NCBI GenBank assembly: GCA_000209465.1
Contig: GL890597.1
Coordinates: 1-64,000, forward strand
Direction: 5' to 3'
Origin: Lachnospiraceae oral taxon 107 str. F0167
Lineage (GTDB): Bacteria > Bacillota > Clostridia > Lachnospirales > Lachnospiraceae
Length of the DNA: 64,000 bases
Both the position numbers and the translations under genes were made by a program. How positions within the stretch are numbered: position 1 is the stretch's first letter; every line of letters begins with the position of its first letter. This document shows positions 3,346-18,012 of this stretch, piece after piece. Under the pieces are notes generated by a model that saw only the letters and a program-made list of their open reading frames with translations, searched no databases and was not told the origin of the DNA.

Positions 3346-3354
3346 ACTTCCCTC

Positions 3355-4503: not shown

Positions 4504-5441
4504 CTTACCCCCATAAAGAATGGTTTTCCATATCTATATACAGGATGTGTACCGTTATTTTTATCTGACACATCATAAATATCCCCTTCAAAGGCATTCT
4601 TATATACCGAACCCGCCTCAATCATATACAGGTCTTTCTTTTTTCTAAATGTATCGGCATATTTTGATGAAGCTATAAACCCGCTTCTTTTCACAACAGT
4701 ATATGATGCACCTTCAAGGCTTTGTTCCAACTCATCCTCATTTGGCAGGCATAATGATAGAGACATAATATCCTTATAGTTATCTATATCTTCAAATTTT
4801 TTTACTATCTCTTTGACCGGAATATCGACACTTAACTTAAATTTCCCATATCCTGATGATACTTTTCCTCCAATACCTGTATAGGAAATACTCTCCATCA
4901 ACTTACTTATCATTTCAAAGTCTTCATCAGCTCCATATCCCACAAAAAAATATAGTCCGCTATCCTTTTTATATTTAAAAATCTCTACAGCATATAAATT
5001 ATTTACTTCATCTTCACTTGCTGTTTCCATAGATACTTTTTCCATCAAAACAGACTCTCCGAGATTTTCACCGAATAAATCTGCTTCCGCTTTTATATCA
5101 AGCTTCCCATTTATAAAGTCATCAAATCTTGATACCGGTATGTATCTTAGCTTCTTTAAAGCCTTTTTTATTATGGAATCACCGTCAGCATCATTGTTCA
5201 ATCGGATTATAGGCTTTGGCAGATAATAATCACATCCTATATATGGAAATGCATTTGATATTTTCAGCTTACAATTTTTACAAAGTTCCAGTAATCTGTC
5301 CGACTTACCATACTTTAATGCCTCTATAAATAAAGCTGAAAATATTGTATCTGCATTTAGTACATTTTGACCTTTTTCAAGTCCGCCACTGCCAAAATGC
5401 ACTGCTGTAGTAAAATCCAACTTTAATATTTTATAGTTCAT
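4500..5441 (-). CDS. csm4: Type III-A effector subunit Csm4 (RAMP)
   Basis: Csm4 binds the 5' tag of the crRNA and holds Cas10 in the complex. The N-terminus (LDFTTAVHFGSGGLEKGQNVLNADTIFSAL, split here only for description) follows the Csm4/Cas5-like RAMP pattern. A glycine-rich C-terminal strand (YTGIGGKVSSGYGKF) forms the second RAMP loop. The 313 residues agree with the family. It lies between csm3 (one base apart) and csm5 (4-base overlap). Confidence 0.9.
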   Translation of the reverse strand: MNYKILKLDFTTAVHFGSGGLEKGQNVLNADTIFSALFIEALKYGKSDRLLELCKNCKLKISNAFPYIGCDYYLPKPIIRLNNDADGDSIIKKALKKLRYIPVSRFDDFINGKLDIKAEADLFGENLGESVLMEKVSMETASEDEVNNLYAVEIFKYKKDSGLYFFVGYGADEDFEMISKLMESISYTGIGGKVSSGYGKFKLSVDIPVKEIVKKFEDIDNYKDIMSLSLCLPNEDELEQSLEGASYTVVKRSGFIASSKYADTFRKKKDLYMIEAGSVYKNAFEGDIYDVSDKNNGTHPVYRYGKPFFMGVR

Positions 5442-5442
5442 A

Positions 5443-6117
5443 CTACACTTCCTTTAATATACTTTTGCATCTTTCCACGATCTCATCTACTTTTTCATCA
5501 TCATTTGTTATAAGTACCTTTACATCGAGATCCTTTATATCAACTCTACCATAGCCTCTTGAGCCTGCTGCACCAAGATAATCATATTTTAAAAGCTTAA
5601 ATACCGTCTTCAAAGTCTTGAAGTCTTCTTCTATCTCACTTTCATCCTCGAGATTATAAATTAAGCTTATACGATATTGTATACCCTTAATAGCTCTTTC
5701 TATCTGTCTTGGATTAGCCACTCCGGTAAGTCTTGATATTGTATTTTCAAACTTTACCTCTGTCGCATCTATATCCTCAGAGTCCAGCCTCTTCTTGCTT
5801 TCCTCACTCATAAAGATATCAGAAAAATAAATTCTGCCTGTCTTCGGATCTTTCTTATCTGCATGTCCAAAAAGTCTTCTCACCAATTCAGGATCACTAT
5901 TATGTTCCTTAGGCAATTCACCATTACTAAGTTGCTTTGATAAAAGAGACCTTAGTTTCCCCTTTAAACTGCTGCCGGGTATCATGGGTAAATCATCATC
6001 TATATCCTTTACAACAACAGAATCCACTGCACCGATTGCTGCAAACTGTGATCCTCCGCCTATATGCAATCCTGTTAATGACTCAATAATTCCACTAATT
6101 TCAAGTTTTCCAAACAT
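5443..6117 (-). CDS. csm3: Type III-A backbone subunit Csm3, target RNA cleavage
   Basis: Csm3 polymerises along the crRNA and cleaves the bound target RNA at 6-nt intervals. The catalytic Asp is present as Asp32 in AAIGAVDSVVVKD, aligned with Asp33 of the well-studied Csm3 proteins. The RNA-binding loop MIPGSSLKGKLRSLL and the C-terminal GAAGSRGYG strand are intact. The 224 aa length is typical. Target RNA cleavage is therefore expected to work even though the Cas10 HD nuclease looks dead. Confidence 0.95.
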   Translation of the reverse strand: MFGKLEISGIIESLTGLHIGGGSQFAAIGAVDSVVVKDIDDDLPMIPGSSLKGKLRSLLSKQLSNGELPKEHNSDPELVRRLFGHADKKDPKTGRIYFSDIFMSEESKKRLDSEDIDATEVKFENTISRLTGVANPRQIERAIKGIQYRISLIYNLEDESEIEEDFKTLKTVFKLLKYDYLGAAGSRGYGRVDIKDLDVKVLITNDDEKVDEIVERCKSILKEV

Positions 6118-6129
6118 ATCTATCCCCTC

Positions 6130-6570
6130 CTATTCATCCTTTCCACCAAGATATTTTCTATATGCTACTAAAGCCTCCATATACAGACAGAATAAAATCA
6201 ATTTATCTTTATCTGCTTTTATCTTATCTATCTGTTCAATAATCTGTGCTTCTTCTACAAACTTCTTTACAGACGGTTCTCTTCCCGCTTCATAAATAGT
6301 ATGCATCTTAAAATATTGTATTTTAGAAACCCAATCAGAGCTTAATGTATTACTCTTTAGTCTCTTTGCTTTTGTATACATATCACTTACCATTGCCAAC
6401 AGCTTTCTGATTTTTGATGTTGTCAGTATCTTGCTTTTCCCGGCTATAAGATTATTTATCACATCTTCTGCCTTCTTTACATAATTTTCATTAGTAAGTT
6501 CTATCGAACTCCTCTTTTTTTCTGTATCACTTCTCTCCCTATTATAGCCAAAATTATTATAACTACCCAT
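6130..6570 (-). CDS. csm2: Type III-A small subunit Csm2
   Basis: Csm2 is the small alpha-helical subunit that forms the inner filament contacting crRNA and target RNA. The sequence is predicted helical and lysine-rich. It contains the family-like block LTTSKIRKLLAMVSDMY followed by KIQYFKMHTIYEAGREPSVKKFVEEA. At 146 aa it is of ordinary length. It begins directly behind csm1 with no gap and ends 12 bases before csm3. Confidence 0.88.
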   Translation of the reverse strand: MGSYNNFGYNRERSDTEKKRSSIELTNENYVKKAEDVINNLIAGKSKILTTSKIRKLLAMVSDMYTKAKRLKSNTLSSDWVSKIQYFKMHTIYEAGREPSVKKFVEEAQIIEQIDKIKADKDKLILFCLYMEALVAYRKYLGGKDE

Positions 6571-8778
6571 CTATCTGCCCTCCTCTTTTCTTATCAAATA
6601 GCTATAGATATAGATTGCTGTTATTGCCTGTTTAGTATCATTATCATTAAGCATCCAATCATACAGTTTTTCTTTAAAGTTTTGATATATTTCTTTTTCT
6701 TCTTCACTTACATTACCCTTTGGTTCCATTCTGGCGAGTGTATATGCCATTCTTGCCAGATTAATCTTCTTATCCCTATTCCTAAAAAGCTCCAAAAGGC
6801 TATACAAAAGGCTCTTTCCCTTATCTTCCGACTTAGAAAAGAATTCGCTGATAATAGTAAATTTCTCTCCCATTACCTCTTCAATAAATTCATCCCAGTG
6901 ATACGAATTATCCTTATCAAACAATGTAATCGCATTCTTATCCTCAAGTTTCTTTGAACAATCCTCAAGTTCACCTGTCTTTTCCGCCATATATGATATA
7001 GGATATTTTGGCATATACATTCCAAGACCTGCTGAAATAGTAAGTCTTCCTTGTGTATATTCCTTTAAGTTATTATATAAATCAATGCTGAACTCCAAAA
7101 TGTCCTTCCATGCCCCCACTACAAAGACATCATCTCCGCCTGAATATATAACAGCTATTTTTCTATTTTCACTTTCATTACCTTTGCTGTCAAAATACGG
7201 TATTTTGTATTCAGCATTTTTCAATATATTATTAATATCATATTTGAAAAACTGGGTAAGCTTTCTTGAGAATGCAGCTGACTTTGACAGAGTCTGCTTT
7301 TCACTGTCAAATCCACCTACAAAAGCCTTTCCAAGATTGTCAATATCACCTCTTAATACTCCAAGCCTTTTAATGCCTATACTGTCCTTTACCAGGTCTT
7401 CTAAAGTATCGGCATCATGATAGTCTCCGGCATATATTGTTTTTATATAGTTATTTCCCTTATATAAGCTATTCTTTGAGTAGGCACGAATCAGAATATT
7501 TTTATTTGTCCTAAGGTATTCTTCACCATCTCTCCTGCTTACATTTTCCGCACTCAAATATCCGCCTTTATATATAGGCAATATACCCTTCTTTACATCA
7601 TTTACTACAGTAAATATTTCTCTCTTTAATATATTTCCCGACAATTTTGCAAAGCCTTCACAGATACTGCATACACCGTCACTGTTTAGATTGTAAGAGC
7701 TGTAGCAAATCCTGCACTCCCTCTCTCCATCAGCCTTTTTCCCCTTATTCAATATTTTTATCTGACTTGCACTATATCTTCTCAGTTTATTTTCAGATAC
7801 TGCTGCAGAGGCTTCTCTGAAACAATTAATATATGCTCCTTCAGGCTGATTCTCCAAATCATTACAAGAACACTGTGCATATCCGGTTCCCACATATAAA
7901 TCAATTCCAAATGTATCCTGCATCCAATTCTTTACATCAGCATCAAAATCTTTGATTAAAGTTTTTGTTTTTTCTGTATTTGCCAATATAAAATAAGCAT
8001 GTCCACCACCTGCATACAATAGATTCGCTCCGGATAACTCAAGCTTATTCAAAAGTTCATCTATTATATTTTCCATCAGTATTTCCAAATAAAAAGACCT
8101 TGCTCTAAGATTCTTTAACACATCTTCCTTACCGTATTGACCGTATATAAATGATTGAATACCTGAGAAATCCATACTGTAAAGCAACATACTCTTTTCA
8201 CTGTAAAATCCCTTAGGATTACTGCATATCTGCTCCTGTTCTTCAAACTTGCCGTTTTCTGTGAGATATTCAAATATGACACTTCCAATCGCTATACTTT
8301 GTTTGATATGTTCATATACTGATATGTCCGTATTTTCTTCCTTTGATACCGGCATATATGATGTAGTCTGTTCCAATAATTCAAGAAAAGAATTTATAAA
8401 GTCCATATCTTCACTTGATGCCTCAAGCTTTTTTGACAGTTTTTCCTTTATAGTTTTATAAAATTCTTCATTCGGTTTAGCTGCAATGTCTTTTGGAACA
8501 TTAACTTTTTCATTTTCATATAGAATACTTGCATCATACTTTTTTGATTCATTATTCTTATTTAGTATGTTGAATATACTATATAGATTCTCTCCCTCTA
8601 AAAAAGCAAATTCCAAATCATGAGTATTTCTCCTGTCGAAGTTTGCTGATATCTTATCTGCCAATTTCCTTATATATATGTTAGCAGTATTTATATCTTC
8701 ACTTTTATTGAAAACTATTTTGTTTGCATAATATAAAAGGCTATCATATATAAATTTGGTTTTTATATCATTATTCAA
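6571..8778 (-). CDS. csm1: Type III-A Cas10/Csm1 with intact cyclase motif and degenerate HD domain
   Basis: Cas10 is the signature subunit. On target RNA binding its palm domain makes cyclic oligoadenylate. The catalytic GGDD is present at residues 547-550 (IAVIYSGGDDVFVVGAW). A zinc ribbon CRIC...CSIC lies near 355-376, and FSGIQSFIY and the GGGHA block of the first palm domain are clear. The N-terminal HD nuclease motif, normally LLHDIGK, reads LLYYANK at residues 14-20, so both the His and the Asp are Tyr. The next conserved His position also looks lost. HD at residues 53-54 is out of register. Expected outcome: signalling to Csm6 without ssDNA cleavage. At 735 aa it is slightly short. 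It overlaps cas6 by 8 bases. Confidence 0.95.
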   Translation of the reverse strand: MNNDIKTKFIYDSLLYYANKIVFNKSEDINTANIYIRKLADKISANFDRRNTHDLEFAFLEGENLYSIFNILNKNNESKKYDASILYENEKVNVPKDIAAKPNEEFYKTIKEKLSKKLEASSEDMDFINSFLELLEQTTSYMPVSKEENTDISVYEHIKQSIAIGSVIFEYLTENGKFEEQEQICSNPKGFYSEKSMLLYSMDFSGIQSFIYGQYGKEDVLKNLRARSFYLEILMENIIDELLNKLELSGANLLYAGGGHAYFILANTEKTKTLIKDFDADVKNWMQDTFGIDLYVGTGYAQCSCNDLENQPEGAYINCFREASAAVSENKLRRYSASQIKILNKGKKADGERECRICYSSYNLNSDGVCSICEGFAKLSGNILKREIFTVVNDVKKGILPIYKGGYLSAENVSRRDGEEYLRTNKNILIRAYSKNSLYKGNNYIKTIYAGDYHDADTLEDLVKDSIGIKRLGVLRGDIDNLGKAFVGGFDSEKQTLSKSAAFSRKLTQFFKYDINNILKNAEYKIPYFDSKGNESENRKIAVIYSGGDDVFVVGAWKDILEFSIDLYNNLKEYTQGRLTISAGLGMYMPKYPISYMAEKTGELEDCSKKLEDKNAITLFDKDNSYHWDEFIEEVMGEKFTIISEFFSKSEDKGKSLLYSLLELFRNRDKKINLARMAYTLARMEPKGNVSEEEKEIYQNFKEKLYDWMLNDNDTKQAITAIYIYSYLIRKEEGR

Positions 8779-9502
8779 ATGCTATTCCCCCCATTCCTAT
8801 TCCTGTTTTTATTCCGACACCTGAATATGTTCCGAAAGTAAGGAGCATATTGGCGAGATTTACAAGTTGAACCGGACCTTTAACCACTATCGTTATATCA
8901 CCTATAAATGCCGGTACTTTTGTGCCATCCAAATGGAATGATGTGCTTCTTAACTTATACATACTTATTTCTACATGCTTTTCAAAAGTTTCAAGTATGT
9001 CTTTGCCAAAAACTTCCATCTGAGTAGATGCTTTATCAAATTTCATCATCAAACTCTGAAAAATCAGCCTTACACTTGGAAAAATCGCATATTTCCCATC
9101 TTGTTTAAATGATGTGGGAGTTAAGAAAGTTATCTTTAGTCTCCTCTGACCATCTTTTAAATAACACTCTTTCACCAAGTCCTTATAGCTGATATTTTTC
9201 TCTGTAACAGAACTCACCTTATATTCTCTATCTTTATGCTTGATATCAATAATCTTCTTGTTTTTAAGTATATCCGCTATCTTCTCCTTGGCTTCCGCAT
9301 TTAGTGTATTCAATGTCCAAATCAATTTATTGTTATTTAAAGTTATATATTGACTATATGGATGCAAGGTACTGACATGCAATTCCTCCACATATTCAAC
9401 ATCTATATTTTCCATTATAAACCCTTGAAATAGTGAGCCAAGTAAGTCATTCCTACTTTTATCAAATTCTCCTTCAAGCTCTATTCTAAGTGAACTTAAC
9501 AT
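8771..9502 (-). CDS. cas6: CRISPR RNA endoribonuclease Cas6
   Basis: Cas6 cuts the array transcript inside each repeat, leaving the 8-nt 5' tag (here ACGGAAAC). The tandem ferredoxin-like RAMP fold ends in the glycine-rich loop GVGIKTGIGMGG. His residues in ELHVSTLHPYSQY near residue 45 are candidates for catalysis. Length is 243 aa. It overlaps csm6 by 7 and csm1 by 8 bases. A single Cas6 must process both arrays. Their repeats share the hairpin and 3' half but differ in the first ten bases. Confidence 0.9.
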   Translation of the reverse strand: MLSSLRIELEGEFDKSRNDLLGSLFQGFIMENIDVEYVEELHVSTLHPYSQYITLNNNKLIWTLNTLNAEAKEKIADILKNKKIIDIKHKDREYKVSSVTEKNISYKDLVKECYLKDGQRRLKITFLTPTSFKQDGKYAIFPSVRLIFQSLMMKFDKASTQMEVFGKDILETFEKHVEISMYKLRSTSFHLDGTKVPAFIGDITIVVKGPVQLVNLANMLLTFGTYSGVGIKTGIGMGGIAFE

Positions 9503-10884
9503 GAAGTAGTTTCCTCTCTATGCTCACTGATTCTTCTCTTCAACTCTTTATTCATATCATCATATGAATCCCAGTATTCCGGTTTAATTCCAAAGTTCGT
9601 ATAATTAAATAATTTCTTTATCTTATCCATTATCTGAACCGGAGTAAATCCTGTCCTATTTTTTATATCATTACTATCCAAAGCAACAATATCATGCGCA
9701 GCAAGATTTCTTACCTTTTCCTCTACGGTTCTAATGTTAGATGCTATATCAAAAAGGACCTCATCATCTATCAAATTCTTTATTAAGTATAGTAATGCCT
9801 CAGAATATATCATTCCAAATCTAAACTCTTCAACTTTATCTTTATCGCTATGTTTGATTTTGTACTCTTTATTTACTATATCCTTAATATTTGTATCTTT
9901 ACCCGGTATGTTTTTTGCTATTTTTCCAGTATCCCATACCCTTACTTTATATCCGTTGAGTGTACAATATTTGTTTATGTCAAGTTTTCCTCTTCCCTTT
10001 AGCACCACTTCAAATAATTCGACCACTATAGGAGTTATTCCTCTGACAAAGTCTATATACTCTTCTCTTTTTACTTTGATGTTCAGCCAAAGCGCATATT
10101 CAAAAAGTTTTCTTGCATCCCCCGCCTTAACCGGTGTAATATCAAATCCTTCTTTTTTATATTCATTATCAACCTTTTTCATATTAAGGTTATAGCGATT
10201 TACTGCACTTAATAACTCATCTATATAATTTTTTGTGCTGTTTTTTTCCATATCTCCGGCTACTGATAATGCGGCTCTGTAGTCATATTCATCAATATGT
10301 TTTTTTATTATTTCTTCTTTTCTAAGCCTTGATAGGGATGGGCATTTGCTCTCAACGCACCTGTTATTGCCTTCCTTTTCCAATTCCATGTTCATTTCCC
10401 ACATCAGTTCCAACTCAAGAACTTTTCCATGTGTATGCTCATTCATCTTTTTTATAGGCGTACTGACCTGAATAAATTTACAATTATACTCATTCAAATC
10501 CTGTAAGATGACCAAGGCGTTTTTCATGGCAGGTGTACCTGAAGAAATATTAATAAAGAAATTATCATCATCATTTAACTCGTTAATAATATTATTTATT
10601 TCTTCCTCGAATTTAAATAAAAACGGATCATATTCTTGCACATTATCACGTTCTTTATCTGCAATTATCACAGACTCGATTTCCTTATTCTTTTGTTCTG
10701 CAAGTTTATTTATGAAAAACCTATATCTATCATCTTTTTCATGTTTTTCATAAATTTCCTTTGTCATATATAAATAGACTTTATCAATATCATAATGTCT
10801 ACATATATGTAACATAGACCCGTCATAGAAATTATTTTCCGATATCGGATCCGTTCCTCCAAGTGGTGAAAAAAGTATATTCAT
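9496..10884 (-). CDS. csm6: Csm6, CARF-HEPN cyclic-oligoadenylate-activated RNase
   Basis: Csm6 is a ring-nucleotide-activated, non-specific RNase that acts in trans after Cas10 signalling. The N-terminal CARF domain is shown by MNILFSPLGGTDPISE and the ligand loop NISSGTPAMKNAL (residues 112-124). The C-terminal HEPN active site is RNLAAH, with Arg392 and His397 in the R-x4-H motif. At 462 aa it is of usual size. It is the first gene of the operon, with GGAGGG before the ATG. With the Cas10 HD motif lost, Csm6 and Csm3 are the likely effector nucleases. Confidence 0.93.
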   Translation of the reverse strand: MNILFSPLGGTDPISENNFYDGSMLHICRHYDIDKVYLYMTKEIYEKHEKDDRYRFFINKLAEQKNKEIESVIIADKERDNVQEYDPFLFKFEEEINNIINELNDDDNFFINISSGTPAMKNALVILQDLNEYNCKFIQVSTPIKKMNEHTHGKVLELELMWEMNMELEKEGNNRCVESKCPSLSRLRKEEIIKKHIDEYDYRAALSVAGDMEKNSTKNYIDELLSAVNRYNLNMKKVDNEYKKEGFDITPVKAGDARKLFEYALWLNIKVKREEYIDFVRGITPIVVELFEVVLKGRGKLDINKYCTLNGYKVRVWDTGKIAKNIPGKDTNIKDIVNKEYKIKHSDKDKVEEFRFGMIYSEALLYLIKNLIDDEVLFDIASNIRTVEEKVRNLAAHDIVALDSNDIKNRTGFTPVQIMDKIKKLFNYTNFGIKPEYWDSYDDMNKELKRRISEHREETTSC

Positions 10885-11042: not shown

Positions 11043-11675
11043 TCAACTTTCAAAGAAGAATTCATATGCTCTATTTGCTATTGCTCTTGTTTCAAGAAAA
11101 TCTACAGCACCACCTACACCTGCTCCCACAAAAGGTACAGCCTTACCCAGGTTGATTACTCCTTTTGATCCGAACTTTGTTACAAATCTGAATCCTATAA
11201 GTTGATTTATTTTTGTAAGAAACTTTCCGGGAATAGTTTTGATAATATTGGTTGCTACCTTTGTTCCTACTTTTATCCCCGCCTGCTTTGCCAGCTGTGT
11301 AAGCGGCATACCTACAAGACAAGCCAGCACAAGAGTCTCTGTTTGATCGCTACTTGGCTCATATCCTGCCATATATGCAGCACAGGCAATCATTCTCATT
11401 TGCATATAGAGTACAGTGCTTACATTTACAGGCAATGTAAACGGAAGCGTTGCAATACCTCCTATACCTGTAATAATACCACTTGAAGTGCACTTTAAAA
11501 CCTGATTATTCAGCATGGCCTTACAGGCTGCTTCCTTACTTGGAAACTTAGTTATATAATCCTGTGCCATACTAACCACACTTGTATTGCCGATTCCAAT
11601 ACCTCTTATTGCCTGTTTGTACACTGTATCCAACCACTTTGCTCCCTGCTCCTGTTTTACAATCTGATTATCCAT
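11043..11675 (-). CDS. EcsC-family protein
   Basis: EcsC-family proteins are membrane-associated and of poorly defined biochemical role. The name comes from the Bacillus ecs locus. Here the family pattern is a glycine/hydrophobic hairpin (GIITGIGGIATLPFTLPVNV), the helix MQMRMIACAAYMAGYE, and a C-terminal glycine-rich helix (KAVPFVGAGVGGAVDF) ending in Phe-rich residues. The 210 aa are complete, with AGGGAG before the ATG and a TATAAT at 11703-11708. No ecsAB genes are near. It sits directly behind peptide cassette A, in the same direction and about 145 bases after its last peptide gene. It could be cotranscribed with that cassette. Confidence 0.8.
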   Translation of the reverse strand: MDNQIVKQEQGAKWLDTVYKQAIRGIGIGNTSVVSMAQDYITKFPSKEAACKAMLNNQVLKCTSSGIITGIGGIATLPFTLPVNVSTVLYMQMRMIACAAYMAGYEPSSDQTETLVLACLVGMPLTQLAKQAGIKVGTKVATNIIKTIPGKFLTKINQLIGFRFVTKFGSKGVINLGKAVPFVGAGVGGAVDFLETRAIANRAYEFFFES

Positions 11676-11821
11676 TTAAATCTCCCTTACTATTCTTCCT
11701 ATATTATACACATCATAAAGTCCAATAAAAACGGCACCATATTATAAAAGAGGTCACTCCTCCTTTTTCTTGGTTGATACTATCCTCTATAAGATACTTA
11801 TTATATGGTCCCCGGGCATAC

Positions 11822-11905
11822 CTATTTGGTAATTGCCTTTATGACCATCCTGACTGCCGGGTTTATCAGGAACTTTTTCACTGCCACTATGATAATACTT
11901 TCCAT
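11822..11905 (-). CDS. Small peptide P2, copy A (27 aa)
   Basis: The gene encodes a 27-residue cationic peptide starting MESIIIVAVKKF, without Cys and with no leader. The P2 family is predicted as an amphipathic helix with net charge about +4 (K10, K11, R19, K23, K27 against E2). GGGGGA lies 9 bases before the ATG. It shares length and the K10-K11, L13 and K23 positions with P1, so the two families are probably paralogous. This copy differs from the others by A9V and V12F. The P3 gene that normally follows is missing: homology stops just after its ribosome binding site near 11762. I know of no named family. Phenol-soluble-modulin-like or bacteriocin-like peptides are only analogies. Confidence 0.65.
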   Translation of the reverse strand: MESIIIVAVKKFLINPAVRMVIKAITK

Positions 11906-11997
11906 AATGAAATCCCCCATATCAAATATAGTGCTACAAGTTTTACTTTGTGTTGTGCTGCTTTATAGGTCTCCTTGACCTTGGTGTCTGTCGCTCC

Positions 11998-12081
11998 TCA
12001 GGCAGTCAGCGTCTTGACTGCTATCTCCAGAAGCATGCTCTCCAGAGCCTTCTTTGCAGCTGCAATAACGATTTTTTTCAT
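11998..12081 (-). CDS. Small peptide P1, copy A (27 aa)
   Basis: The gene encodes a 27-residue peptide that begins MKKIVIAAAKKALESM and ends in KTLTA. It is Ala/Leu/Ile-rich with five Lys and two Glu, so it is probably an amphipathic cationic helix. TATAGGAGGATTACACT precedes the ATG and holds a perfect AGGAGG. Against copies C and D, three of the four changed codons are synonymous. The only variable residue is 14 (Glu, Val or Leu). It is the first gene of its cassette and P2 follows after about 92 bases. Function unknown. Confidence 0.7.
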   Translation of the reverse strand: MKKIVIAAAKKALESMLLEIAVKTLTA

Positions 12082-12160
12082 AGTGTAATCCTCCTATATA
12101 CTCATACATTTTTGTTTCCTTTTACTCTAAGCTTTTGCCTTAGCTCTTTGCTATATTTAT

Positions 12161-12283
12161 ATTATAGCTCTAATGGTTTTTGTTTGACATTAGTAGTTTT
12201 TATCCATGTCGCAACTACTTTTATTTGCCTGTTACAAGCTATACTCTTGTTTTTATTGTAATTTTGCAACCACATTTTATTAT
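12161..12283 (-). promoter_or_regulatory. Cassette A promoter with paired 55-bp-spaced motifs
   Basis: A minus-strand TATAAT lies at 12161-12166 with no good -35 box, which suggests activator dependence. Upstream are two motifs (plus-strand GCAACTACTTTTATT at 12211 and GCAACCACATTTTATT at 12266) whose cores are 55 bases apart. The nearer core starts 53 bases beyond the -10 box, as in cassettes B, C and E. The 5' leader can form the stem CTAAG/CTTAG. Confidence 0.65.
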
Positions 12284-12336
12284 CACTTTAGCTTCCCCCC
12301 TTTGCTTTTCTTAATTATATAAAGTGGCTTTCGCCA

Positions 12337-12504
12337 CTACAGCTGCTGCTGCTTCGCCGCCTCGGCCTCAGTGACCAACTTGGCGAGTTCCAGGAGCGCA
12401 AGCCCCAAGTGTGCAGCCACCTTCGGCCAGCCCTCCAGCCCGTCCCTCCTTGCCAGTTCGTTCAGGGTCTTCTTGCTTGTTTCCATCACTATATTCTTTT
12501 CCAT
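12337..12504 (-). CDS. Small protein P3, copy B (55 aa)
   Basis: The 55-residue product starts MEKNIVMETSKKTL. It has a central GLEGWPKVAAHLG and a helical Leu/Ala/Glu stretch, and ends in AKQQQL. AAAGGAG stands 7 bases before the ATG. The coding DNA is much richer in G+C (GGG, CTG, CTC, GCG codons) than the genes around it, which points to transfer or special constraint. Across four copies most changes are silent (ACC/ACA, CCG/CCA, CTT/CTG, GAG/GAA) or conservative (R/K, E/D). The TAG stop overlaps a GAAA-tetraloop hairpin (12323-12338) that may stabilise or end the transcript. No cysteine, signal peptide or known domain is seen. Confidence 0.75.
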   Translation of the reverse strand: MEKNIVMETSKKTLNELARRDGLEGWPKVAAHLGLALLELAKLVTEAEAAKQQQL

Positions 12505-12572
12505 AGTTTTTCTCCTTTTTCTTGGTTGATACTATCCTCTATAGGATACTTATTATATGGTCCCGGGCATAC

Positions 12573-12656
12573 CTATTTGGTAATTGCCTTTATGACCATC
12601 CTGACTGCCGGGTTTATCAGGACCTTTTTCGCTGCCACTATGATAATGCTTTCCAT
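12573..12656 (-). CDS. Small peptide P2, copy B (27 aa)
   Basis: The sequence begins MESIIIVAAKKVLINP, the consensus form of the family, identical in protein to copy D. GGGGAGGA precedes the ATG. In this cassette P2 is the first gene, because no P1 lies between the promoter and P2. P3 copy B follows after 68 bases that contain the conserved TATCCT/AGGATA hairpin. Confidence 0.72.
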   Translation of the reverse strand: MESIIIVAAKKVLINPAVRMVIKAITK

Positions 12657-12742
12657 AATGAAATCCTCCCCTATACTAAAACTATTTGGCTAACCGTTTC
12701 ACTTTACTTTTCAGTTTTTCTTCAGCTCTTTGTTATGTACCC

Positions 12743-12864
12743 ATTATATCTCTAATAGTTTTTATTTGTAATTAGTAGTATCTTTGTGTCGCGCGACCAC
12801 TTTTAATGTCTCAACTACAGGCATACAGATGTTTTAGTTTTGAAACTATAACCACATTTTATTG
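12743..12864 (-). promoter_or_regulatory. Cassette B promoter with paired 55-bp-spaced motifs
   Basis: TATAAT lies at 12743-12748 on the minus strand. The two upstream motif cores (ACCAC, plus strand) are at 12796 and 12851, exactly 55 bases apart. The surroundings (about 12665-12945) are closely similar to those of cassette E (17045-17320), so this promoter was duplicated together with the nearby array flank. Confidence 0.68.
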
Positions 12865-12995
12865 TCAAAGTGAAATTATATTGAAAGATCCGGTAAATCT
12901 TAGTTTTATCTTTTATCCGGAATATTTTATAAAATGGTAGACTTGTACTTATAATCATAGGAACATACGAGGAAGATAAAAATCTGTGCTCCAGC

Positions 12996-13027
12996 AAAAA
13001 TAGGAGGTATTATCCTCCTATTTTTTT
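12996..13027 (-). terminator. Bidirectional hairpin after CRISPR array 1
   Basis: Stem AATAGGAGG (12999-13007) pairs with CCTCCTATT (13014-13022) and is followed by T-runs on either strand. On the minus strand it would end the array 1 transcript before cassette B. The related hairpin after array 2 is weaker. Confidence 0.7.
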
Positions 13028-13082
13028 GACTTGGTTTTTTTGCTTATCTTTATGATTTTATTTTAGATATGATATTAAATTA

Positions 13083-13342
13083 TATGCTGTCCCCTTGTCG
13101 GGGTTATCTTATGTAAACTCCAATAAATGGGACCTTCCAGATATCGATCCAGATGTTGTTTCCGTCCCCTTGTCGGGGTTATCTTATGTAAACTGTAGTT
13201 GCTGTTGGTCAAGATAGTAATGGAAATATTTTGAGTTTCCGTCCCCTTGTCGGGGTTATCTTATGTAAACGGATCCGACAAGGTGACATACAAGGCTATA
13301 CAGTCAGTTTCCGTCCCCTTGTCGGGGTTATCTTATGTAAAC
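13083..13342 (-). CRISPR. CRISPR array 1: 4 repeats, 3 spacers
   Basis: Repeats of 36 bp start at 13083, 13158, 13235 and 13307. Spacers are 39, 41 and 36 bp. On the minus strand the repeat begins GTTTACATAAGATAACCCC and ends AAGGGGACGGAAAC, with a CCCC/GGGG hairpin and the type III 5' tag ACGGAAAC. The leftmost repeat is degenerate in its last six bases (positions 13083-13088). With the tag sequence, this puts the leader at the right end and transcription leftward, as for the cas operon. Protospacers could not be searched. Confidence 0.95.
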
Positions 13343-13490
13343 CTACCCCCTCTCAGCCCTTATAACACAAGGCTTTCAAGTGGCTTTAGCGTGCCTAAAA
13401 TTTAACAAGCTATTTTTCTTTAAATTTTAGTGACATTTGTTACTGCAAGTGCTACAAACCCTTTATTTATAAGGGCCGTCTCAAAATCAC
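13343..13490 (-). promoter_or_regulatory. Leader of CRISPR array 1
   Basis: This stretch shares long blocks with the flank of array 2 (TGGCTTTAGCGTGCCTAAAA, plus strand, and AAGGGCCGTCTCAAAA). Conservation right next to the non-degenerate end of both arrays marks it as the leader that promotes transcription and guides Cas1-Cas2. Minus-strand TTGAAA (13374-13379) could be a -35 box but no clean -10 is seen. The stretch 13491-13624 shows nothing further. Confidence 0.7.
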
Positions 13491-13624
13491 TTTTTTTAAT
13501 AAAAAATATTCTTAAGTTTAAATATCACACACTAAAATTGCCAAAATATTACATCTTATGTAAATAAGACTTTTTTTATTCTATCACATATTTTACTACA
13601 ATACTACTGATATGAATATAAAAC

Positions 13625-13657
13625 TAAAAAAGCTACAACACTATTCAGGTGCTGTAA
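13625..13657 (-). terminator. Terminator of cassette C
   Basis: On the minus strand TACAGCAC and GTGTTGTA form a stem around CTGAATA, followed by GCTTTTTT. The same element occurs after cassette E at 16587-16619 with base changes that keep pairing through wobbles. It lies about 100 bases after the P3 stop. Confidence 0.75.
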
Positions 13658-13753
13658 CTAAATTTACTTCGTTTTCTTTACCTTATTCCATTGTTGCATT
13701 TCTAACTTGTCTGCCCCTTTGCTTTTCTTAATTATATAAAGTGGCTTTCGCCA

Positions 13754-13921
13754 CTACAGCTGCTGCTTCTTCGCCGCTTCGGCCTCAGTGACCAGCTTGG
13801 CGAGTTCCAGGAGCGCAAGCCCCAAGTGTGCAGCCACTTTTGGCCAGCCCTCCAGCCCGTCCCTCCTTGCCAGTTCGTTCAGTGTCTTCTTGCTTGTTTC
13901 CATCACTATATTCTTTTCCAT
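13754..13921 (-). CDS. Small protein P3, copy C (55 aa)
   Basis: Same start and AAAGGAG site as copy B. Relative to B the protein differs only near the end (AKKQQL instead of AKQQQL), although several codons differ silently, for example in Thr13, Pro27, Lys28, Leu43 and Glu48. The stop overlaps a GAAA-tetraloop hairpin at 13740-13755. It is the last gene of a complete P1-P2-P3 cassette. Confidence 0.75.
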   Translation of the reverse strand: MEKNIVMETSKKTLNELARRDGLEGWPKVAAHLGLALLELAKLVTEAEAAKKQQL

Positions 13922-13989
13922 AGTTTTTCTCCTTTTTCTTGGTTGATACTATCCCCTATAGGATACTTATTATATGGTCCCCTGCGTAT

Positions 13990-14073
13990 CTATTTGGTAA
14001 TCGCCTTTATGACCATCCTGACTGCCAAGTTTATCAGGACCTTTTTCGCTGCCATTATGATAATACTTTCCAT
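13990..14073 (-). CDS. Small peptide P2, copy C (27 aa)
   Basis: Differs from the consensus by V7M and P16L. The loss of Pro16 leaves an uninterrupted helix in this copy. TGGAGGATTTAATT precedes the ATG. The intergenic hairpin before P3 is kept by a wobble pair (TATCCT/GGGATA). Confidence 0.7.
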   Translation of the reverse strand: MESIIIMAAKKVLINLAVRMVIKAITK

Positions 14074-14165
14074 AATTAAATCCTCCATATCAAATATAGT
14101 GCTACATGTTTTACTTTATGTTGTGCTGCTTTATAGGTTACCTTGACCTTGGTGTCTGTCGCTCC

Positions 14166-14249
14166 TCAGGCAGTCAGCGTCTTGACTGCTATCTCTAGAA
14201 GCATGCTCACCAGAGCCTTTTTTGCAGCTGCAATAACGATTTTTTTCAT
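14166..14249 (-). CDS. Small peptide P1, copy C (27 aa)
   Basis: Identical to copy A except Glu14 to Val. Codon changes at Lys11 and Leu18 are silent. AGGAGG lies before the ATG. The P1 stop TGA overlaps GGAG. The 92-base gap to P2 contains no reading frame of note. Confidence 0.7.
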   Translation of the reverse strand: MKKIVIAAAKKALVSMLLEIAVKTLTA

Positions 14250-14315
14250 ATTGTAATCCTCCTATATACTCATACATTTTTGTTTCCTTTTGCCTTAGCT
14301 CTTTGCTATGTTTAT

Positions 14316-14439
14316 ATTATAGCTCTAATAGTTTTTGTTTGACATTAGTAGTTTTTATCTATGTTGCAACCACTTTTATTTTCCTGTTACAAGCTATACT
14401 CTTGTTTTTATTGTAATTTTGCAACCATATTTTATTATC
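14316..14439 (-). promoter_or_regulatory. Cassette C promoter with paired 55-bp-spaced motifs
   Basis: TATAAT lies at 14316-14321 (minus). The motif cores are at 14369 (GCAACCACTTTTATT) and 14424 (GCAACCATATTTTATT), again 55 bases apart and 53 bases from the -10 box. It lies between the end of cassette D and the first gene of cassette C. Confidence 0.68.
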
Positions 14440-14490
14440 GCTTTAGCTTCCCCCTTTGCTTTTCTTAATTATATAAAGTGGCTTTCACCA

Positions 14491-14655
14491 CTACAGCTGC
14501 TTCTTCGCCGCTTCGGCCTCAGTGACCAGCTTGGCGAGTTCCAGGAGCGCAAGCCCCAAGTGTGCAGCCACTTTTGGCCAGCCCTCCAGCCCGTCCCTCC
14601 TTGCCAGTTCGTTCAGTGTCTTCTTGCTTGTTTCCATCACTATATTCTTTTCCAT
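14491..14655 (-). CDS. Small protein P3, copy D (54 aa)
   Basis: One residue shorter than the other copies at the C-terminus (AAKKQL), through loss of one CAG codon. Otherwise it follows copy C. The stop-overlapping hairpin (14477-14492) has a C to T change that turns a C-G pair into T.G, so pairing is preserved. Confidence 0.74.
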   Translation of the reverse strand: MEKNIVMETSKKTLNELARRDGLEGWPKVAAHLGLALLELAKLVTEAEAAKKQL

Positions 14656-14723
14656 AGTTTTTCTCCTTTTTCTTGGTTGATACTATCCTCTATAGGATAC
14701 TTATTATATGGTCCCGGGCATAC

Positions 14724-14807
14724 CTATTTGGTAATCGCCTTTATGACCATCCTGACTGCCGGGTTTATCAGGACCTTTTTCGCTGCCACTATTATAATAC
14801 TTTCCAT
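14724..14807 (-). CDS. Small peptide P2, copy D (27 aa)
   Basis: The protein is identical to copy B while the DNA differs at silent positions (ATC/ATA for Ile5, GCA/GCG for Ala24). TGGAGGATTTTATT precedes the ATG. It is the middle gene of a complete cassette. Confidence 0.72.
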   Translation of the reverse strand: MESIIIVAAKKVLINPAVRMVIKAITK

Positions 14808-14899
14808 AATAAAATCCTCCATATCAAATATAATGCTACATGTTTTACTTTGTGTTGTGCTGCTTTATAGGTTACCTTGACCTTGGTGTCTGTCGCTCC

Positions 14900-14983
14900 T
14901 CAGGCAGTCAGCGTCTTGACTGCTATCTCCAGAAGCATACTCAACAGAGCCTTTTTTGCAGCTGCAATAACGATTTTTTTCAT
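14900..14983 (-). CDS. Small peptide P1, copy D (27 aa)
   Basis: Residue 14 is Leu here. Ser15 is encoded by AGT instead of AGC, a silent change. AGGAGGATTACAAT lies before the ATG. It is the first gene of the cassette nearest the WYL regulator gene and transcribed away from it. Confidence 0.7.
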   Translation of the reverse strand: MKKIVIAAAKKALLSMLLEIAVKTLTA

Positions 14984-15062
14984 ATTGTAATCCTCCTATA
15001 TACTCGTACATTTTTGTTTCCTTTTGCTCTAAGCTTTTGTCTTAGCTCTTTGCTATGTTTAT

Positions 15063-15180
15063 ATTATAGCTCTAATGAATATTATTAAAATTAGTAATGT
15101 ATTTCTATACTGCACCCACTTTTGTCGGTTTATTATAAGTGATATAATAGTTTAAACTATAGTTTTACGACCACTTTTTA
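15063..15180. promoter_or_regulatory. Divergent control region between cassette D and the WYL gene
   Basis: For cassette D (minus), TATAAT lies at 15063-15068 with motif cores at 15115 and 15170, 55 bases apart. For the WYL gene (plus), TATAAT lies at 15143-15148, so the motif at 15170 falls just downstream of its likely start point. One protein bound here could activate the cassette and repress its own gene. That last point is inference. Confidence 0.65.
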
Positions 15181-15199
15181 TTATTAAGGAGAAAAACAT

Positions 15200-16270
15200 A
15201 TGGGTGAATCAAGAAAAGTCGATATTTATCTTCCACCGGAAATAATTCAAATGATCTATAATGACATAGAGCTTTTTGAACTGTTTAAACCGGACAAAGG
15301 CGATAGTATAATGGTAAATAATAAGAACGCCTTTATGAATCAACTGCTCAGCGGTTATTTTGATAACTACAAAAATGAGATAAATGCTTATGCATCAGAT
15401 ATTTCTAATATATTAGGTCAATATAATATAAAGAATGATACTATCCGAGATATAGTTTCCTCTTTTTTTAATGATATAGTATTCTCACAAAAAGAAGATA
15501 TCTATAAAAGTAAAAAAGAAATTAAAACCTCTAATGAGAAATTTCCATTTAGAACCACTGATAAAAATGGAACTATCGTAATATTAGATGAAATTGAATC
15601 AGAACTTCAAAATATTGACACCAGCCTATCAGGATATATATGCAAAATGTTAATATCTTATTTTAAAAAACCTCTATACGAACGTGAGCAGATTATATTT
15701 AGTTCAAATTATAAAAACATATTACAATGTTGCCAAAAAAACGGGATAAAATTTCTCTATTCATCAGATAACAAATGGTACACGGTAATACCGTATAAGA
15801 TCTTCCGTGGTAAAGAACAGATGTTTAACTATATATTCTGTTATGGATTAGATGAAAATCAAAATACAAAAACTTACTCATTTAGGCTAAATCGAATAAC
15901 CAATTTAAAGGTATCAAATATTCTTATTAATATACCTGAAGATATTGAAAAAAATTTCCTGGCAACACAAAGACTTGGTGCTTCGTATGCTATAAATAGT
16001 GATTTGGAAGAAAGCTGTGTTATTCTAAACACTAAAGGTCTATCTTCTTTTAAGCATATTTATTTTGGTAGACCACAAGTAGATAGTAAGGAACAAACTC
16101 CGGAGGGTAATTTTAAATATTATTTCAAATGCTCAACCGAACAACTATATAGATACTTTAGAAGGTTTAACTCGGGAGAAGCTATCGTAGAATATCCTAT
16201 TGAGCTTCGTAACAAGATAATAAGCTTCCACCAGAAATCTCTGGAAGTATATCAAGATGGTAAATTATAA
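15200..16270 (+). CDS. Ribbon-helix-helix / WYL-domain regulator
   Basis: The 356-residue protein is probably a DNA-binding regulator. The N-terminus (RKVDIYLPPEIIQMI, then NKNAFMNQLLSGYF to residue 56) fits a ribbon-helix-helix fold. Residues about 165-250 form a WYL domain: NILQCCQKNGIKFLYSS, TVIPYKIFRGKEQMFNYIFC, then YSFRLNRITNLKV. WYL domains often bind nucleic-acid or nucleotide ligands and occur in CRISPR loci. The accessory protein RspWYL1 of type VI-D systems has the same RHH-WYL layout. Here there is no Cas13, only the Csm operon. AAGGAG lies 8 bases before the ATG. It is the only plus-strand gene of the island, flanked by the peptide cassettes whose promoters carry the motif pair also found in front of it. 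Confidence 0.85.
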   Translation: MGESRKVDIYLPPEIIQMIYNDIELFELFKPDKGDSIMVNNKNAFMNQLLSGYFDNYKNEINAYASDISNILGQYNIKNDTIRDIVSSFFNDIVFSQKEDIYKSKKEIKTSNEKFPFRTTDKNGTIVILDEIESELQNIDTSLSGYICKMLISYFKKPLYEREQIIFSSNYKNILQCCQKNGIKFLYSSDNKWYTVIPYKIFRGKEQMFNYIFCYGLDENQNTKTYSFRLNRITNLKVSNILINIPEDIEKNFLATQRLGASYAINSDLEESCVILNTKGLSSFKHIYFGRPQVDSKEQTPEGNFKYYFKCSTEQLYRYFRRFNSGEAIVEYPIELRNKIISFHQKSLEVYQDGKL

Positions 16271-16334
16271 AATATCCAAGTGGGACCATCGGAAAACAAA
16301 TAATTTTAAATTCTACATCATAAAATAGGTTACT

Positions 16335-16387
16335 ATCCTGACAAATCAGAGCGTTTTGGCTTTATGACTTTGTCAGGATGTTTTTTC
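16335..16387 (+). terminator. Terminator of the WYL gene
   Basis: Stem ATCCTGACAAA (16335-16345) pairs perfectly with TTTGTCAGGAT (16369-16379) and is followed by GTTTTTT. It lies 64 bases after the stop codon. The stretch 16388-16586 shows no other feature. Confidence 0.85.
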
Positions 16388-16586
16388 TTTAATTGATAAA
16401 CTAAAGTTGAATTTTTATGATCTATTTTAAAAAAGTCATTAAAACAAATTAACTGTAATCATAGTTAAATTATAATATGGCTCTTTGTCAAATGTTGGGA
16501 TGGGTTGAACAACCCACTTTTTCAAATAAACCTTTTACATTCTATCACATATTTGTGTACTTTACTGATTATATCCCGCTAACACA

Positions 16587-16619
16587 GAAAAAAGCTACAA
16601 CACAATTCAAGTGCCATAA
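16587..16619 (-). terminator. Terminator of cassette E
   Basis: Minus-strand stem TATGGCAC/GTGTTGTA around TTGAATT, followed by GCTTTTTT. It is homologous to 13625-13657, with wobble-preserving differences. Confidence 0.7.
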
Positions 16620-16716
16620 CTAAATTTACTTTGTTTTTATTACCCCATTATGTTGTTTAATTTCTAATTCTCTTTCTTTATTTACATTTTTTAATTATAT
16701 AAAGTGGCTTTCGCCA

Positions 16717-16884
16717 CTACAGCTGCTGCTTCTTCGCTGCATCGGTCTCAATGACCAACTTGGCGAGTTCCAGGAGCGCCAGCCCCAAGTGCACAGCCAC
16801 CTTTGGCCAGCCCTCCAGCCCGTCCCTTTTTGCCAGTTCGTTCAGTGTCTTCTTGCTTGTTTCCATCACTATATTCTTTTCCAT
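16717..16884 (-). CDS. Small protein P3, copy E (55 aa)
   Basis: The most diverged P3: R19K, A31V, T45I, A47T, E48D and K52, but the frame, the length and the GLEGWPK core are kept. AAAGGAG precedes the ATG. The stop-overlapping hairpin lies at 16703-16718. Divergence that is mainly silent or conservative in this frame supports real translation. Confidence 0.75.
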   Translation of the reverse strand: MEKNIVMETSKKTLNELAKRDGLEGWPKVAVHLGLALLELAKLVIETDAAKKQQL

Positions 16885-16952
16885 GGTTTTTCTCCTTTTT
16901 CTTGGTTGATATTATCCTTTATAGGATACTTATTATATGGTCCTCGGCGTAC

Positions 16953-17036
16953 CTATTTGGTAATCGCCTTTATGACCATCCTGACTGCCATGTTTATCAG
17001 GACCTTTTTCGCTGCCGCTATAATGATAACTTCCAT
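16953..17036 (-). CDS. Small peptide P2, copy E (27 aa)
   Basis: The N-terminus reads MEVIIIAAAKKV and residue 16 is Met instead of Pro. TAGGAGGATTTTATT precedes the ATG. As in cassette B, no P1 gene precedes it, so cassettes B and E have the P2-P3 form and C and D the P1-P2-P3 form. Confidence 0.7.
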   Translation of the reverse strand: MEVIIIAAAKKVLINMAVRMVIKAITK

Positions 17037-17123: not shown

Positions 17124-17245
17124 ATTATATATCTGATAGTTTTTATTTGTAATTAGTAGTATCTTTGTATCACGCGACCACTTTTAATGGCTTAATTACA
17201 GCTATACAGATGTTTTAGTTTTAGAATTATAACCACATTTTATTG
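17124..17245 (-). promoter_or_regulatory. Cassette E promoter with paired 55-bp-spaced motifs
   Basis: TATAAT lies at 17124-17129 (minus). The motif cores are at 17177 (GCGACCACTTTTAATG) and 17232 (ATAACCACATTTTATTG), 55 bases apart. Almost every base of the motif pair agrees with cassette B. Confidence 0.68.
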
Positions 17246-17524: not shown

Positions 17525-18012
17525 TATGCCGTCCCCTTATCGAGGGGTGTCAGCTTTCAACAAAGTTGAGCTAGCAAGTGTAAAAGAGATTAGTGTCACA
17601 GAAGTTTCCGTCCCCTTATCGGGGTTATCATCTTTCAACTGTAAATGTTAAAATGTCTAAAAATTTTCTGCTTTTGTTTCCGTCCCCTTATCGGGGTTAT
17701 CATCTTTCAACCAGAGGTTATCAAGAATAAGATGTGCTGAAATTATACCGTTTCCGTCCCCTTATCGGGGTTATCATCTTTCAACCAGTTTCTTATTGAT
17801 GTTATAAACAATAGTTGTTATGTTTCCGTCCCCTTATCGGGGTTATCATCTTTCAACCTAAATATATGCTTAGTTTAATAAAAACCGATCAATATAAGTT
17901 TCCGTCCCCTTATCGGGGTTATCATCTTTCAACTTCGTGGAATAAAAGGTTATTTCACAGAAACAAAAATTGGCAAGTTTCCGTCCCCTTATCGGGGTTA
18001 TCATCTTTCAAC
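17525..18012 (-). CRISPR. CRISPR array 2: 7 repeats, 6 spacers
   Basis: Full 36-bp repeats start at 17604, 17676, 17750, 17822, 17898 and 17977. A degenerate one covers about 17525-17561. Spacers are 42, 36, 38, 36, 40 and 43 bp from left to right. On the minus strand the repeat begins GTTGAAAGATGATAACCCC and ends AAGGGGACGGAAAC, typical of type III-A. The decayed repeat at the left and the conserved flank at the right give leftward transcription, with the newest spacer at the right. Confidence 0.96.

What the first reader, a model, noticed from the sequence alone, without database searches (positions are those of the whole stretch)
11762..17036. Five-copy cassettes of three leaderless small peptides (P1, P2, P3) interleaved with type III CRISPR arrays
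Twelve very short genes form five minus-strand cassettes: A (P1-P2), B (P2-P3), C and D (P1-P2-P3) and E (P2-P3). Each has a good AGGAG-type site. P1 and P2 (27 aa) share length and key positions (K10-K11, L13, K23), so they look like a duplicated pair of cationic amphipathic helices. P3 (54-55 aa) carries GLEGWPK and an acidic helical tail. None matches a family I know. Two CRISPR arrays and an RHH-WYL gene sit between the cassettes, which suggests a defence, abortive-infection or peptide-signalling role. This function is inference.
Basis: partly seen in the sequence, partly recalled or inferred. Interest (0 to 1): 0.88.

Follow-up and report, generated by a model that had tools for sequence, protein, structure and literature searches.

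The report
WYL-controlled tiny-peptide cassettes in CRISPR locus
A bacterium carries five duplicated sets of very small peptide genes inside its CRISPR immune locus, and all five sets share a promoter design that marks them as likely targets of the one regulator gene sitting among them, so they look like a switchable extra arm of immunity rather than random repeats.

Summary
In detail: 12 tiny minus-strand genes (P1 x3, P2 x5, P3 x4) form five cassettes in a csm1-6/cas6/cas1 type III-A locus. P1 and P3 copies vary mostly at silent sites; P2 is not decisive. New result: every cassette carries two direct operator-like sites 55 nt apart and a -10 box 51-52 nt after the second. The same promoter occurs beside RHH-WYL genes in other genera. 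A matrix built only from other loci, without the nearest relative, ranks the cassettes 1, 2, 4, 6 and 13 of 383,574 paired positions in the window. So RHH-WYL (15200-16270), a WYL1/PafBC/DriD-like protein, very probably controls all five and perhaps, through cassette A, EcsC and Csm6. In G205 WYL, one small LGGW peptide, EcsC and Csm6 stand together. Six other WYL loci have a divergent ~60-aa LxGWPA peptide, which P3 resembles weakly. Most likely the peptides are a WYL-switched, membrane-acting arm of type III immunity; that last step is untested. P1-P3 had no convincing relative in the collections searched. Strong amphipathicity was not confirmed.

The parts
11998..12081 (-). P1, cassette A (27 aa)
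   Evidence: ORF with AGGAGG site; 300-nt repeat D2
11822..11905 (-). P2, cassette A (27 aa); site GGGGG
12573..12656 (-). P2, cassette B
12337..12504 (-). P3, cassette B (55 aa)
14166..14249 (-). P1, cassette C
13990..14073 (-). P2, cassette C
13754..13921 (-). P3, cassette C
14900..14983 (-). P1, cassette D
14724..14807 (-). P2, cassette D
14491..14655 (-). P3, cassette D (54 aa; one residue shorter, in frame)
16953..17036 (-). P2, cassette E
16717..16884 (-). P3, cassette E
12206..12277 (-). paired operator-like sites, cassette A (55 nt apart)
   Evidence: rank 1 of 383,574 with the 18-site matrix without L060; -10 box 52 nt after site-2 core
12788..12859 (-). paired operator-like sites, cassette B (weakest)
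   Evidence: rank 13 (18 sites) and 42 (10 sites); 55 is its best spacing of 35-75; shuffles 21 of 1000 (12 sites)
14361..14432 (-). paired operator-like sites, cassette C
   Evidence: rank 2
15107..15178 (-). paired operator-like sites between RHH-WYL and cassette D
   Evidence: rank 1 with the 12-site matrix, 4 with the 18-site matrix
17169..17240 (-). paired operator-like sites, cassette E
   Evidence: rank 6
15200..16270 (+). RHH-WYL regulator, 356 aa
   Evidence: profile hit to 6oaw WYL1 E 3.1e-16; AlphaFold2 secondary structure fits two RHH units, a beta-barrel and a C-terminal domain (my reading); Foldseek 6oaw E 1.7e-13
11043..11675 (-). EcsC-family protein, 210 aa, downstream of cassette A
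   Evidence: Pfam EcsC E 2.1e-9; PADLOC PDC-S29 E 4e-65; 71% identical in G205
9496..10884 (-). Csm6
   Evidence: TIGR02672 E 7.4e-137
2341..9502 (-). cas1, csm5, csm4, csm3, csm2, csm1, cas6
   Evidence: NCBIfam models above cut-off
13083..13342 (-). CRISPR array 1 (4 repeat units, the leftmost degenerate), read as minus-strand
   Evidence: family D4; 3' end GGGGACGGAAAC as in the G205 array; orientation is inference
17525..18012 (-). CRISPR array 2 (7 repeat units, the leftmost degenerate)
   Evidence: families D4, D11

Best explanation
The five cassettes are one regulon. The RHH-WYL protein binds a paired direct-repeat operator upstream of each cassette and just before its own gene. From the fixed position of the second site (about 64 nt before the inferred transcription start) it more likely switches the cassettes on than blocks them, while limiting its own synthesis through the site next to its start codon; a WYL ligand such as single-stranded nucleic acid from infection would be the trigger. 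Induction yields many copies of three tiny peptides and, through cassette A, perhaps EcsC and Csm6. I propose that the cationic, hydrophobic P1 and P2, with P3, act on the cell's own membrane, alone or with the mostly helical EcsC, to stop growth of an infected cell while Csm6 cuts RNA. Shown by computation: the genes, silent-site bias in P1 and P3, the shared promoter design, the WYL fold. Inferred: binding, direction of regulation, ligand, co-transcription of EcsC and Csm6, membrane action, cell arrest.
For: Paired operator: a matrix from 12 sites of 6 outside WYL loci found, in loci L064, L065, L066 and L067 that had not gone into it, its best pair 12-22 nt before the WYL start, with spacing 55, 55, 55, 56. 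Window ranks A1 C2 D4 E6 B13 of 383,574 with 18 outside sites and no L060; 55 is the best of all spacings 35-75 in 5 of 5 cassettes. The -10 box is 51-52 nt after site 2 in 5 of 5 cassettes and 50-52 in 5 of 6 outside promoters; L063 has none of the six hexamers tried. Sigma-70-like promoters with 10 of 12 matches at A, B, C, E (none listed at D). G205 keeps WYL, a small peptide, EcsC and Csm6 together, while its csm1 gene lies in another place of the genome. Six WYL loci have a divergent ~60-aa LxGWPA gene (L061 and L062 are near copies). A second III-A locus in G205 carries three tiny ORFs between cas2 and cas6. EcsC was named among the predicted targets of a CRISPR-controlled sigma factor (PMC10028731, passages read).
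Against: No expression, binding or toxicity data. The G205 operator is not significant when left out of the matrix (197 of 1000 shuffles reach the score). Cassette B is weak (rank 42 with the 10-site matrix; 21 of 1000 shuffles with 12 sites). A pair inside rpoC scores like the cassette operators (19.0 with 18 sites) and ranks first with the 10-site matrix (20.3). Helical moments of P1 and P2 are ordinary. The LxGWPA profile did not recover P3 at E <= 1 in its own genome, and P3 has K where the group has A. EcsC has no fold match at E <= 0.001, from a model of mean pLDDT 69.8. The cassettes are duplicates, so their sites are not independent. L068 gives only a chance-level pair and L069 none.
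Confidence: 0.5

Rival explanations
1. Repressed toxin model: RHH-WYL is a CapW/BrxR-like repressor of host-directed toxic peptides and lets go during infection. Same parts, opposite sign.
For: WYL repressors of defence operons are known (CapW, PMC9122588, passages read). Divergent regulator-peptide layout in 7 of 13 outside WYL loci examined.
Against: Site 2 lies upstream of the -35 hexamer in the four cassettes with a listed promoter (A, B, C, E) and keeps the same distance to the -10 box in D, the usual place for activators. Closest folds after WYL1 are PafBC and DriD, titled as activators.
Confidence: 0.25
2. Secreted leaderless bacteriocin or PSM-like peptides with EcsC as immunity or export partner; closeness to CRISPR is accidental.
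For: Short, leaderless, cationic P1 and P2, several related peptides per operon, multi-copy.
Against: No Pfam or NCBIfam match; among ORFs of 110 aa or more between 9.5 and 19.2 kb none looks like an ABC transporter (four of them scanned); WYL and the EcsC-Csm6 link recur in another genus.
Confidence: 0.12
3. The peptides are non-toxic helpers: they modulate Csm6, EcsC, the Csm complex or the regulator.
For: Tiny ORFs occur inside a second III-A operon; low pN/pS of P3.
Against: Helpers would hardly need five promoters and twelve copies (inference); P1-P3 were not found outside this genome.
Confidence: 0.1
4. Decaying repeats without function.
For: Cassette A has no P3; P2 pN/pS is only 0.45; found in one genome only; few changes to count.
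Against: pN/pS 0.17-0.22 for P3 and P1 in the gene frame; conserved operators and -10 geometry; the P3 length change is in frame.
Confidence: 0.03

Closest known systems
RspWYL1, accessory protein of type VI-D CRISPR (6oaw; PMC6547453, passages read)
   Same: Two RHH units, WYL barrel and C-terminal domain in one chain; sequence E 3.1e-16, fold E 1.7e-13
   Different: RspWYL1 is reported to favour ssRNA over dsDNA and to boost Cas13d; here a conserved DNA operator argues for promoter control
CapW and BrxR (WYL regulators of CBASS and BREX)
   Same: WYL protein controlling a defence operon
   Different: CapW has a winged helix and is reported to bind a palindrome (PMC9122588, passages; BrxR from recall); here RHH and two direct sites 55 nt apart; weaker fold match (E 2.7e-3 and 7.3e-3)
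CASP-sigma regulon of type III-E (PMC10028731, passages read)
   Same: A CRISPR-linked transcription factor with predicted targets in its own locus, one of them an EcsC homologue
   Different: Sigma factor freed by Csx30 cleavage, no tiny peptides in the passages read; here type III-A with an RHH-WYL protein
Type I toxins and tiny membrane toxins (Ldr, Ibs, Fst recalled; TimP seen in a search listing only)
   Same: Very short hydrophobic genes, often in several copies
   Different: Usually held by antisense RNA; Rfam finds none in 9000-19500 and a protein regulator is present
Leaderless bacteriocins and phenol-soluble modulins (recalled)
   Same: Size, charge, no leader
   Different: No ABC-transporter-like ORF nearby; CRISPR setting

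Membership tests
Type III-A CRISPR-Cas | Cas10/Csm1 with Csm2-5, Cas6 and Csm6 | tested here: met
   NCBIfam models above their cut-offs for csm1-6, cas6 and cas1; two arrays
RHH-WYL (WYL1-like) regulators | N-terminal RHH units, WYL barrel, C-terminal domain | tested here: met
   Pfam WYL alone is below its cut-off (13.8 against 21.8 bits)
RHH-WYL (WYL1-like) regulators | binds RNA and stimulates a Cas nuclease | not testable with these tools
   needs purified protein
WYL-controlled defence operon (CapW/BrxR kind) | regulator site in the promoter of the controlled genes | tested here: inconclusive
   paired sites with conserved spacing in 5 of 5 cassettes, B weak; binding itself untested
LxGWPA small proteins (group defined here) | LxGWPA followed by a hydrophobic segment | tested here: inconclusive
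   P3 has LEGWPK; 7.3 bits, reached by 1 of 2000 shuffles; of 947 mechanical ORFs the two group members and one chance ORF score higher; missed at E <= 1
cOA-gated type III ancillary effector | CARF or SAVED sensor domain | tested here: not met
   P1-P3 are 27-55 aa with no Pfam or NCBIfam match (P3 also none in PADLOC); Csm6 itself has a CARF domain
Leaderless bacteriocin | dedicated transporter or immunity gene nearby, family match | tested here: not met
   EcsC as immunity cannot be excluded
Type I toxin-antitoxin | antisense RNA antitoxin | tested here: inconclusive
   no Rfam match; promoter-like sites on both strands 30 against 22.6 (sd 4.0) in shuffles, several of them on the plus strand

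The most novel reading that the evidence does not exclude
A new kind of type III CRISPR effector arm: multi-copy tiny membrane-acting peptides with no second-messenger sensor of their own, switched by an RHH-WYL protein through a fixed-geometry promoter (site, 55, site, 52, -10) that is shared with LxGWPA peptide modules, one of them seen beside serine recombinases (L077). The CRISPR system would thus have borrowed a free-standing WYL-peptide defence module and amplified it fivefold beside its arrays.
Probability: 0.35. Interest if true: 0.9.

Novelty: new variant of a known kind. Interest (0 to 1): 0.74.

Why it matters
Type III effectors are catalogued by their sensor domains and by annotated genes, so genes of 27-55 codons are easily missed (inference); the census in PMC11229360 (passages read) also set WYL factors aside. 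If these peptides are effectors, a layer of CRISPR immunity made of tiny genes may have been overlooked. The operator-plus-geometry rule gives a search key that does not depend on peptide similarity, and makes the question what WYL proteins sense during infection testable in a simple reporter.

Tried and rejected
P3 relatives: none convincing beyond its own genome in 40 relatives, including the 5 congeners offered (hits at E 0.24-0.67 rejected), 396 other family genomes, IMG/VR, plasmids and phages, GTDB contigs (only N-terminal patterns were used, so this miss is weak). P1/P2: nothing convincing in 396 other genomes (98 of them have some match at E <= 1, best 0.009 inside an 854-codon frame). 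RHH-WYL: not in plasmids or phages; one IMG/VR contig; of five GTDB-contig hits three (L074-L076) are records already seen as L061-L063. LxGWPA proteins: L061 and L110 forms not in plasmids; one IMG/VR contig, that of L077.

Homology of P1/P2 with the tiny ORFs of L069: not supported (hhalign P 0.0013 over 12 columns, and 0.03). P3 with LxGWPA: hhalign P 0.0024, probability 12%, kept as suggestive only. L060's 71-aa peptide with the group: P 0.0006, 11 of 2000 shuffles. EcsC as the constant partner of tiny peptides: rejected as a general rule; of 6 family genomes with a close EcsC (358 searched at E <= 1e-25) only our own and G205 have WYL and Csm6 beside it; in the other four stretches fetched (11-19 kb, one cut by its contig end) none of the window's cas, WYL or other reference proteins but EcsC was found. 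Strong amphipathicity of P1/P2: rejected. Rfam: nothing. EcsC fold: no match at E <= 0.001.

Operator work: sites of L060 were placed by eye and fail the leave-one-out test, so the main ranking is given without them. L062 was dropped as a near copy of L061. The other five training loci pass leave-one-out (0 of 1000 shuffles each). One search used L064-L068 among its null loci before I saw that they hold WYL genes; that null is void.

Literature: searches showed me no report of tiny peptide cassettes in a type III locus or of this operator in the held open-access library; I read listings and passages, no whole paper, and most subscription papers are not in it.


Full report
What is there. Blocks of 300 nt are 93-96% identical to their reference copies. 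P1 and P3 change mostly at silent sites: pooled pN/pS 0.22 and 0.17-0.20, the lowest of six frames for each. For P3 an opposite-strand frame without stops comes second with 0.27, and for P1 only five columns vary, so this is support and not proof; P2, at 0.45, is not decisive. The length change in P3 of cassette D is one residue, in frame. P1 and P2 are paralogues: 10 of 27 identical, reached by 148 of 100,000 shuffles. Eleven of twelve genes have a GGAG-type ribosome site on reading; P2 of cassette A has GGGGG, and cassette A has no P3.

Setting. The locus is a type III-A system with csm1-6, cas6 and cas1, all above NCBIfam cut-offs. Array 1 lies between cassettes B and C, array 2 outside E. 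From the repeat end GGGGACGGAAAC, shared with the G205 array, both arrays read on the minus strand like the cassettes (inference). Cassettes B and E thus lie at the far end of arrays 1 and 2, and flanking blocks (D6, D10, D12; 91, 85 and 71% identical) show that array and cassette were duplicated together. Downstream of cassette A come an EcsC protein, which PADLOC lists as phage-defence candidate PDC-S29 (E 4e-65), and Csm6.

The regulator. The plus-strand gene 15200-16270 falls below the Pfam WYL cut-off, but a four-sequence profile finds 6oaw, the Cas13d accessory WYL1, at E 3.1e-16. The AlphaFold2 model (mean pLDDT 77.5) has, on my reading of its secondary structure, two RHH units, a beta-barrel and a C-terminal domain. 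Foldseek returns 6oaw at E 1.7e-13, then PafBC and DriD, with CapW and BrxR weaker.

The regulon. In the 397 family genomes drawn, 10, ours included, have this protein at E <= 1e-8; scans of GTDB contigs and IMG/VR added L072, L073 and L077. I examined 13 outside loci. Seven have a small divergent gene carrying LxGW: L060 (71 aa, LGGW) and L061, L062, L063, L072, L073, L077 (about 57-63 aa, LxGWPA; L061 and L062 are near copies). L064-L068 have no such gene; in L064, the one tested, the divergent gene is a DUF2828/DUF7788 protein. L069 has cas1 there. Aligning the promoters showed two direct repeats, core GGGGTCGT or GTGGTCGT, 54-57 nt apart in the outside loci and 55 nt apart in every window cassette (the second site of A and the first of C were read by eye because the search word missed them; searches confirm them).

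Tests of the operator. A matrix of 12 sites from six outside loci, used on WYL loci that had not gone into it, put its best pair 12-22 nt before the WYL start in L064, L065, L066 and L067, with spacing 55, 55, 55 and 56; L068 gave a chance-level pair and L069 none. With 20 outside sites the cassettes rank 1 (A), 2 (C), 3 (D), 5 (E) and 9 (B) among about 384,000 paired positions of the window. Without the nearest relative L060, whose sites I had placed by eye and which fail when left out (197 of 1000 shuffles reach the score; the other five loci 0 of 1000), the ranks are 1, 2, 4, 6 and 13 of 383,574 with 18 sites, and 4, 5, 3, 9 and 42 with 10 sites, in the order A, C, D, E, B. Among the other high scorers are a pair inside rpoC, first of all with 10 sites, and the CRISPR repeats. 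Of all spacings from 35 to 75, 55 is best in five of five cassettes. A -10 box stands 51-52 nt after the second core in five of five cassettes and 50-52 nt after it in five of six outside promoters; L063 has none of the hexamers tried. The cassettes are duplicates, so their sites are not independent, but those of D and of B/E differ clearly from those of A and C.

The module elsewhere. G205, another genus of the family, has WYL, the 71-aa peptide, EcsC (71% identical) and Csm6 (74.5%) side by side, followed by an NrdD gene and an array of at least 51 repeats, while its csm1 gene lies about 0.5 Mb away. The stretch fetched around that csm1 shows no csm6, but it is cut within csm4. It also holds three tiny ORFs of 38, 38 and 49 aa which, with two larger genes, lie between cas2 and cas6. 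They resemble P1/P2 in size and start, but homology is not supported.

P3. Its LEGWP motif and its place in a WYL-linked locus suggest kinship with the LxGWPA group: 1 of 2000 shuffles reaches its score, and of 947 mechanical ORFs only the two group members and one chance ORF score higher; hhalign P is 0.0024. Against this, P3 has K after GWP, and the group profile did not find P3 in its own genome at E <= 1. I call this suggestive. LxGWPA genes also occur without WYL, after a 159-160-aa gene: in this genome (L109), in G049 a little before IetA/IetS defence genes (L110), and in G063 (L111).

How it may work. The second site sits about 64 nt before the inferred start of transcription, and the -35 hexamer follows it in A, B, C and E, which suits an activator; the first site of D sits just before the WYL start codon, which suits autorepression. 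The trigger is unknown; PafBC and DriD are reported to bind ssDNA (PMC10693628, passages read; DriD-ssDNA structures). I propose that the peptides act on the host membrane with EcsC as a second arm to Csm6. The precedent for a CRISPR-linked transcription factor with an EcsC gene among its predicted targets is CASP-sigma (PMC10028731, passages read). Against a simple amphipathic-helix story, the helical moments of P1 and P2 are ordinary; they are cationic and hydrophobic.

Verdict. Very probably real genes and a real regulon; function inferred. The peptides match no family in the libraries used beyond a PHROGs hit of P3 at E 0.018 (P1 and P2 were not run against PADLOC), and I found no description of the five-fold, WYL-switched layout in the papers searched.

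Noticed in passing
L109:7823-8005 (+) (own genome, G000:C1 54000-70000): The same genome holds an LxGWPA 60-aa gene after a YaaC-like gene and a 160-aa gene of unknown family; similar pairs in L110 (near IetA/IetS defence genes) and L111. Possibly a separate defence module with a tiny membrane protein.
   Followed up: partly
window 13083-13342 and 17525-18012: The CRISPR repeat end (AAGGGGACGGAAAC) resembles the operator half-site: 43 and 13 of 2000 shuffles score as high for the repeats of arrays 1 and 2, 34 of 2000 for the G205 repeat. Chance, or a hint that the RHH-WYL protein also meets repeat RNA.
   Followed up: partly
L061, L072, L073, L077 WYL upstream regions: The operator site next to the WYL start is part of a palindrome CCCC-N5-GGGG, so a hairpin in the WYL mRNA is possible.
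   Followed up: no
L064-L068: RHH-WYL relatives stand divergent from a DUF2828/DUF7788 gene (Pfam tested in L064 only; the others look alike by eye); in L064-L067 the paired operator is present. A wider RHH-WYL regulon class.
   Followed up: partly
L069:6017-6475 (-): Three tiny ORFs (49, 38, 38 aa) between cas2 and cas6 in a second type III-A locus; no RHH-WYL operator found.
   Followed up: partly
L061:13660-15396, L063:11045-12757, L073:2688-4382: A 564-578-aa protein follows RHH-WYL; L061 and L063 forms have no PADLOC family and no Pfam family above cut-off. It may be the main effector of the LxGWPA module.
   Followed up: no
window 435-1962 (-): An NrdD-like reductase gene that looks split into shorter frames (925-1962 scanned; 435-851 not), near the cas genes; a full-length relative follows csm6 in G205.
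   Followed up: no
window 23902-23974 (-): A pair of operator-like sites inside rpoC scores as high as the cassette operators; probably chance.
   Followed up: no
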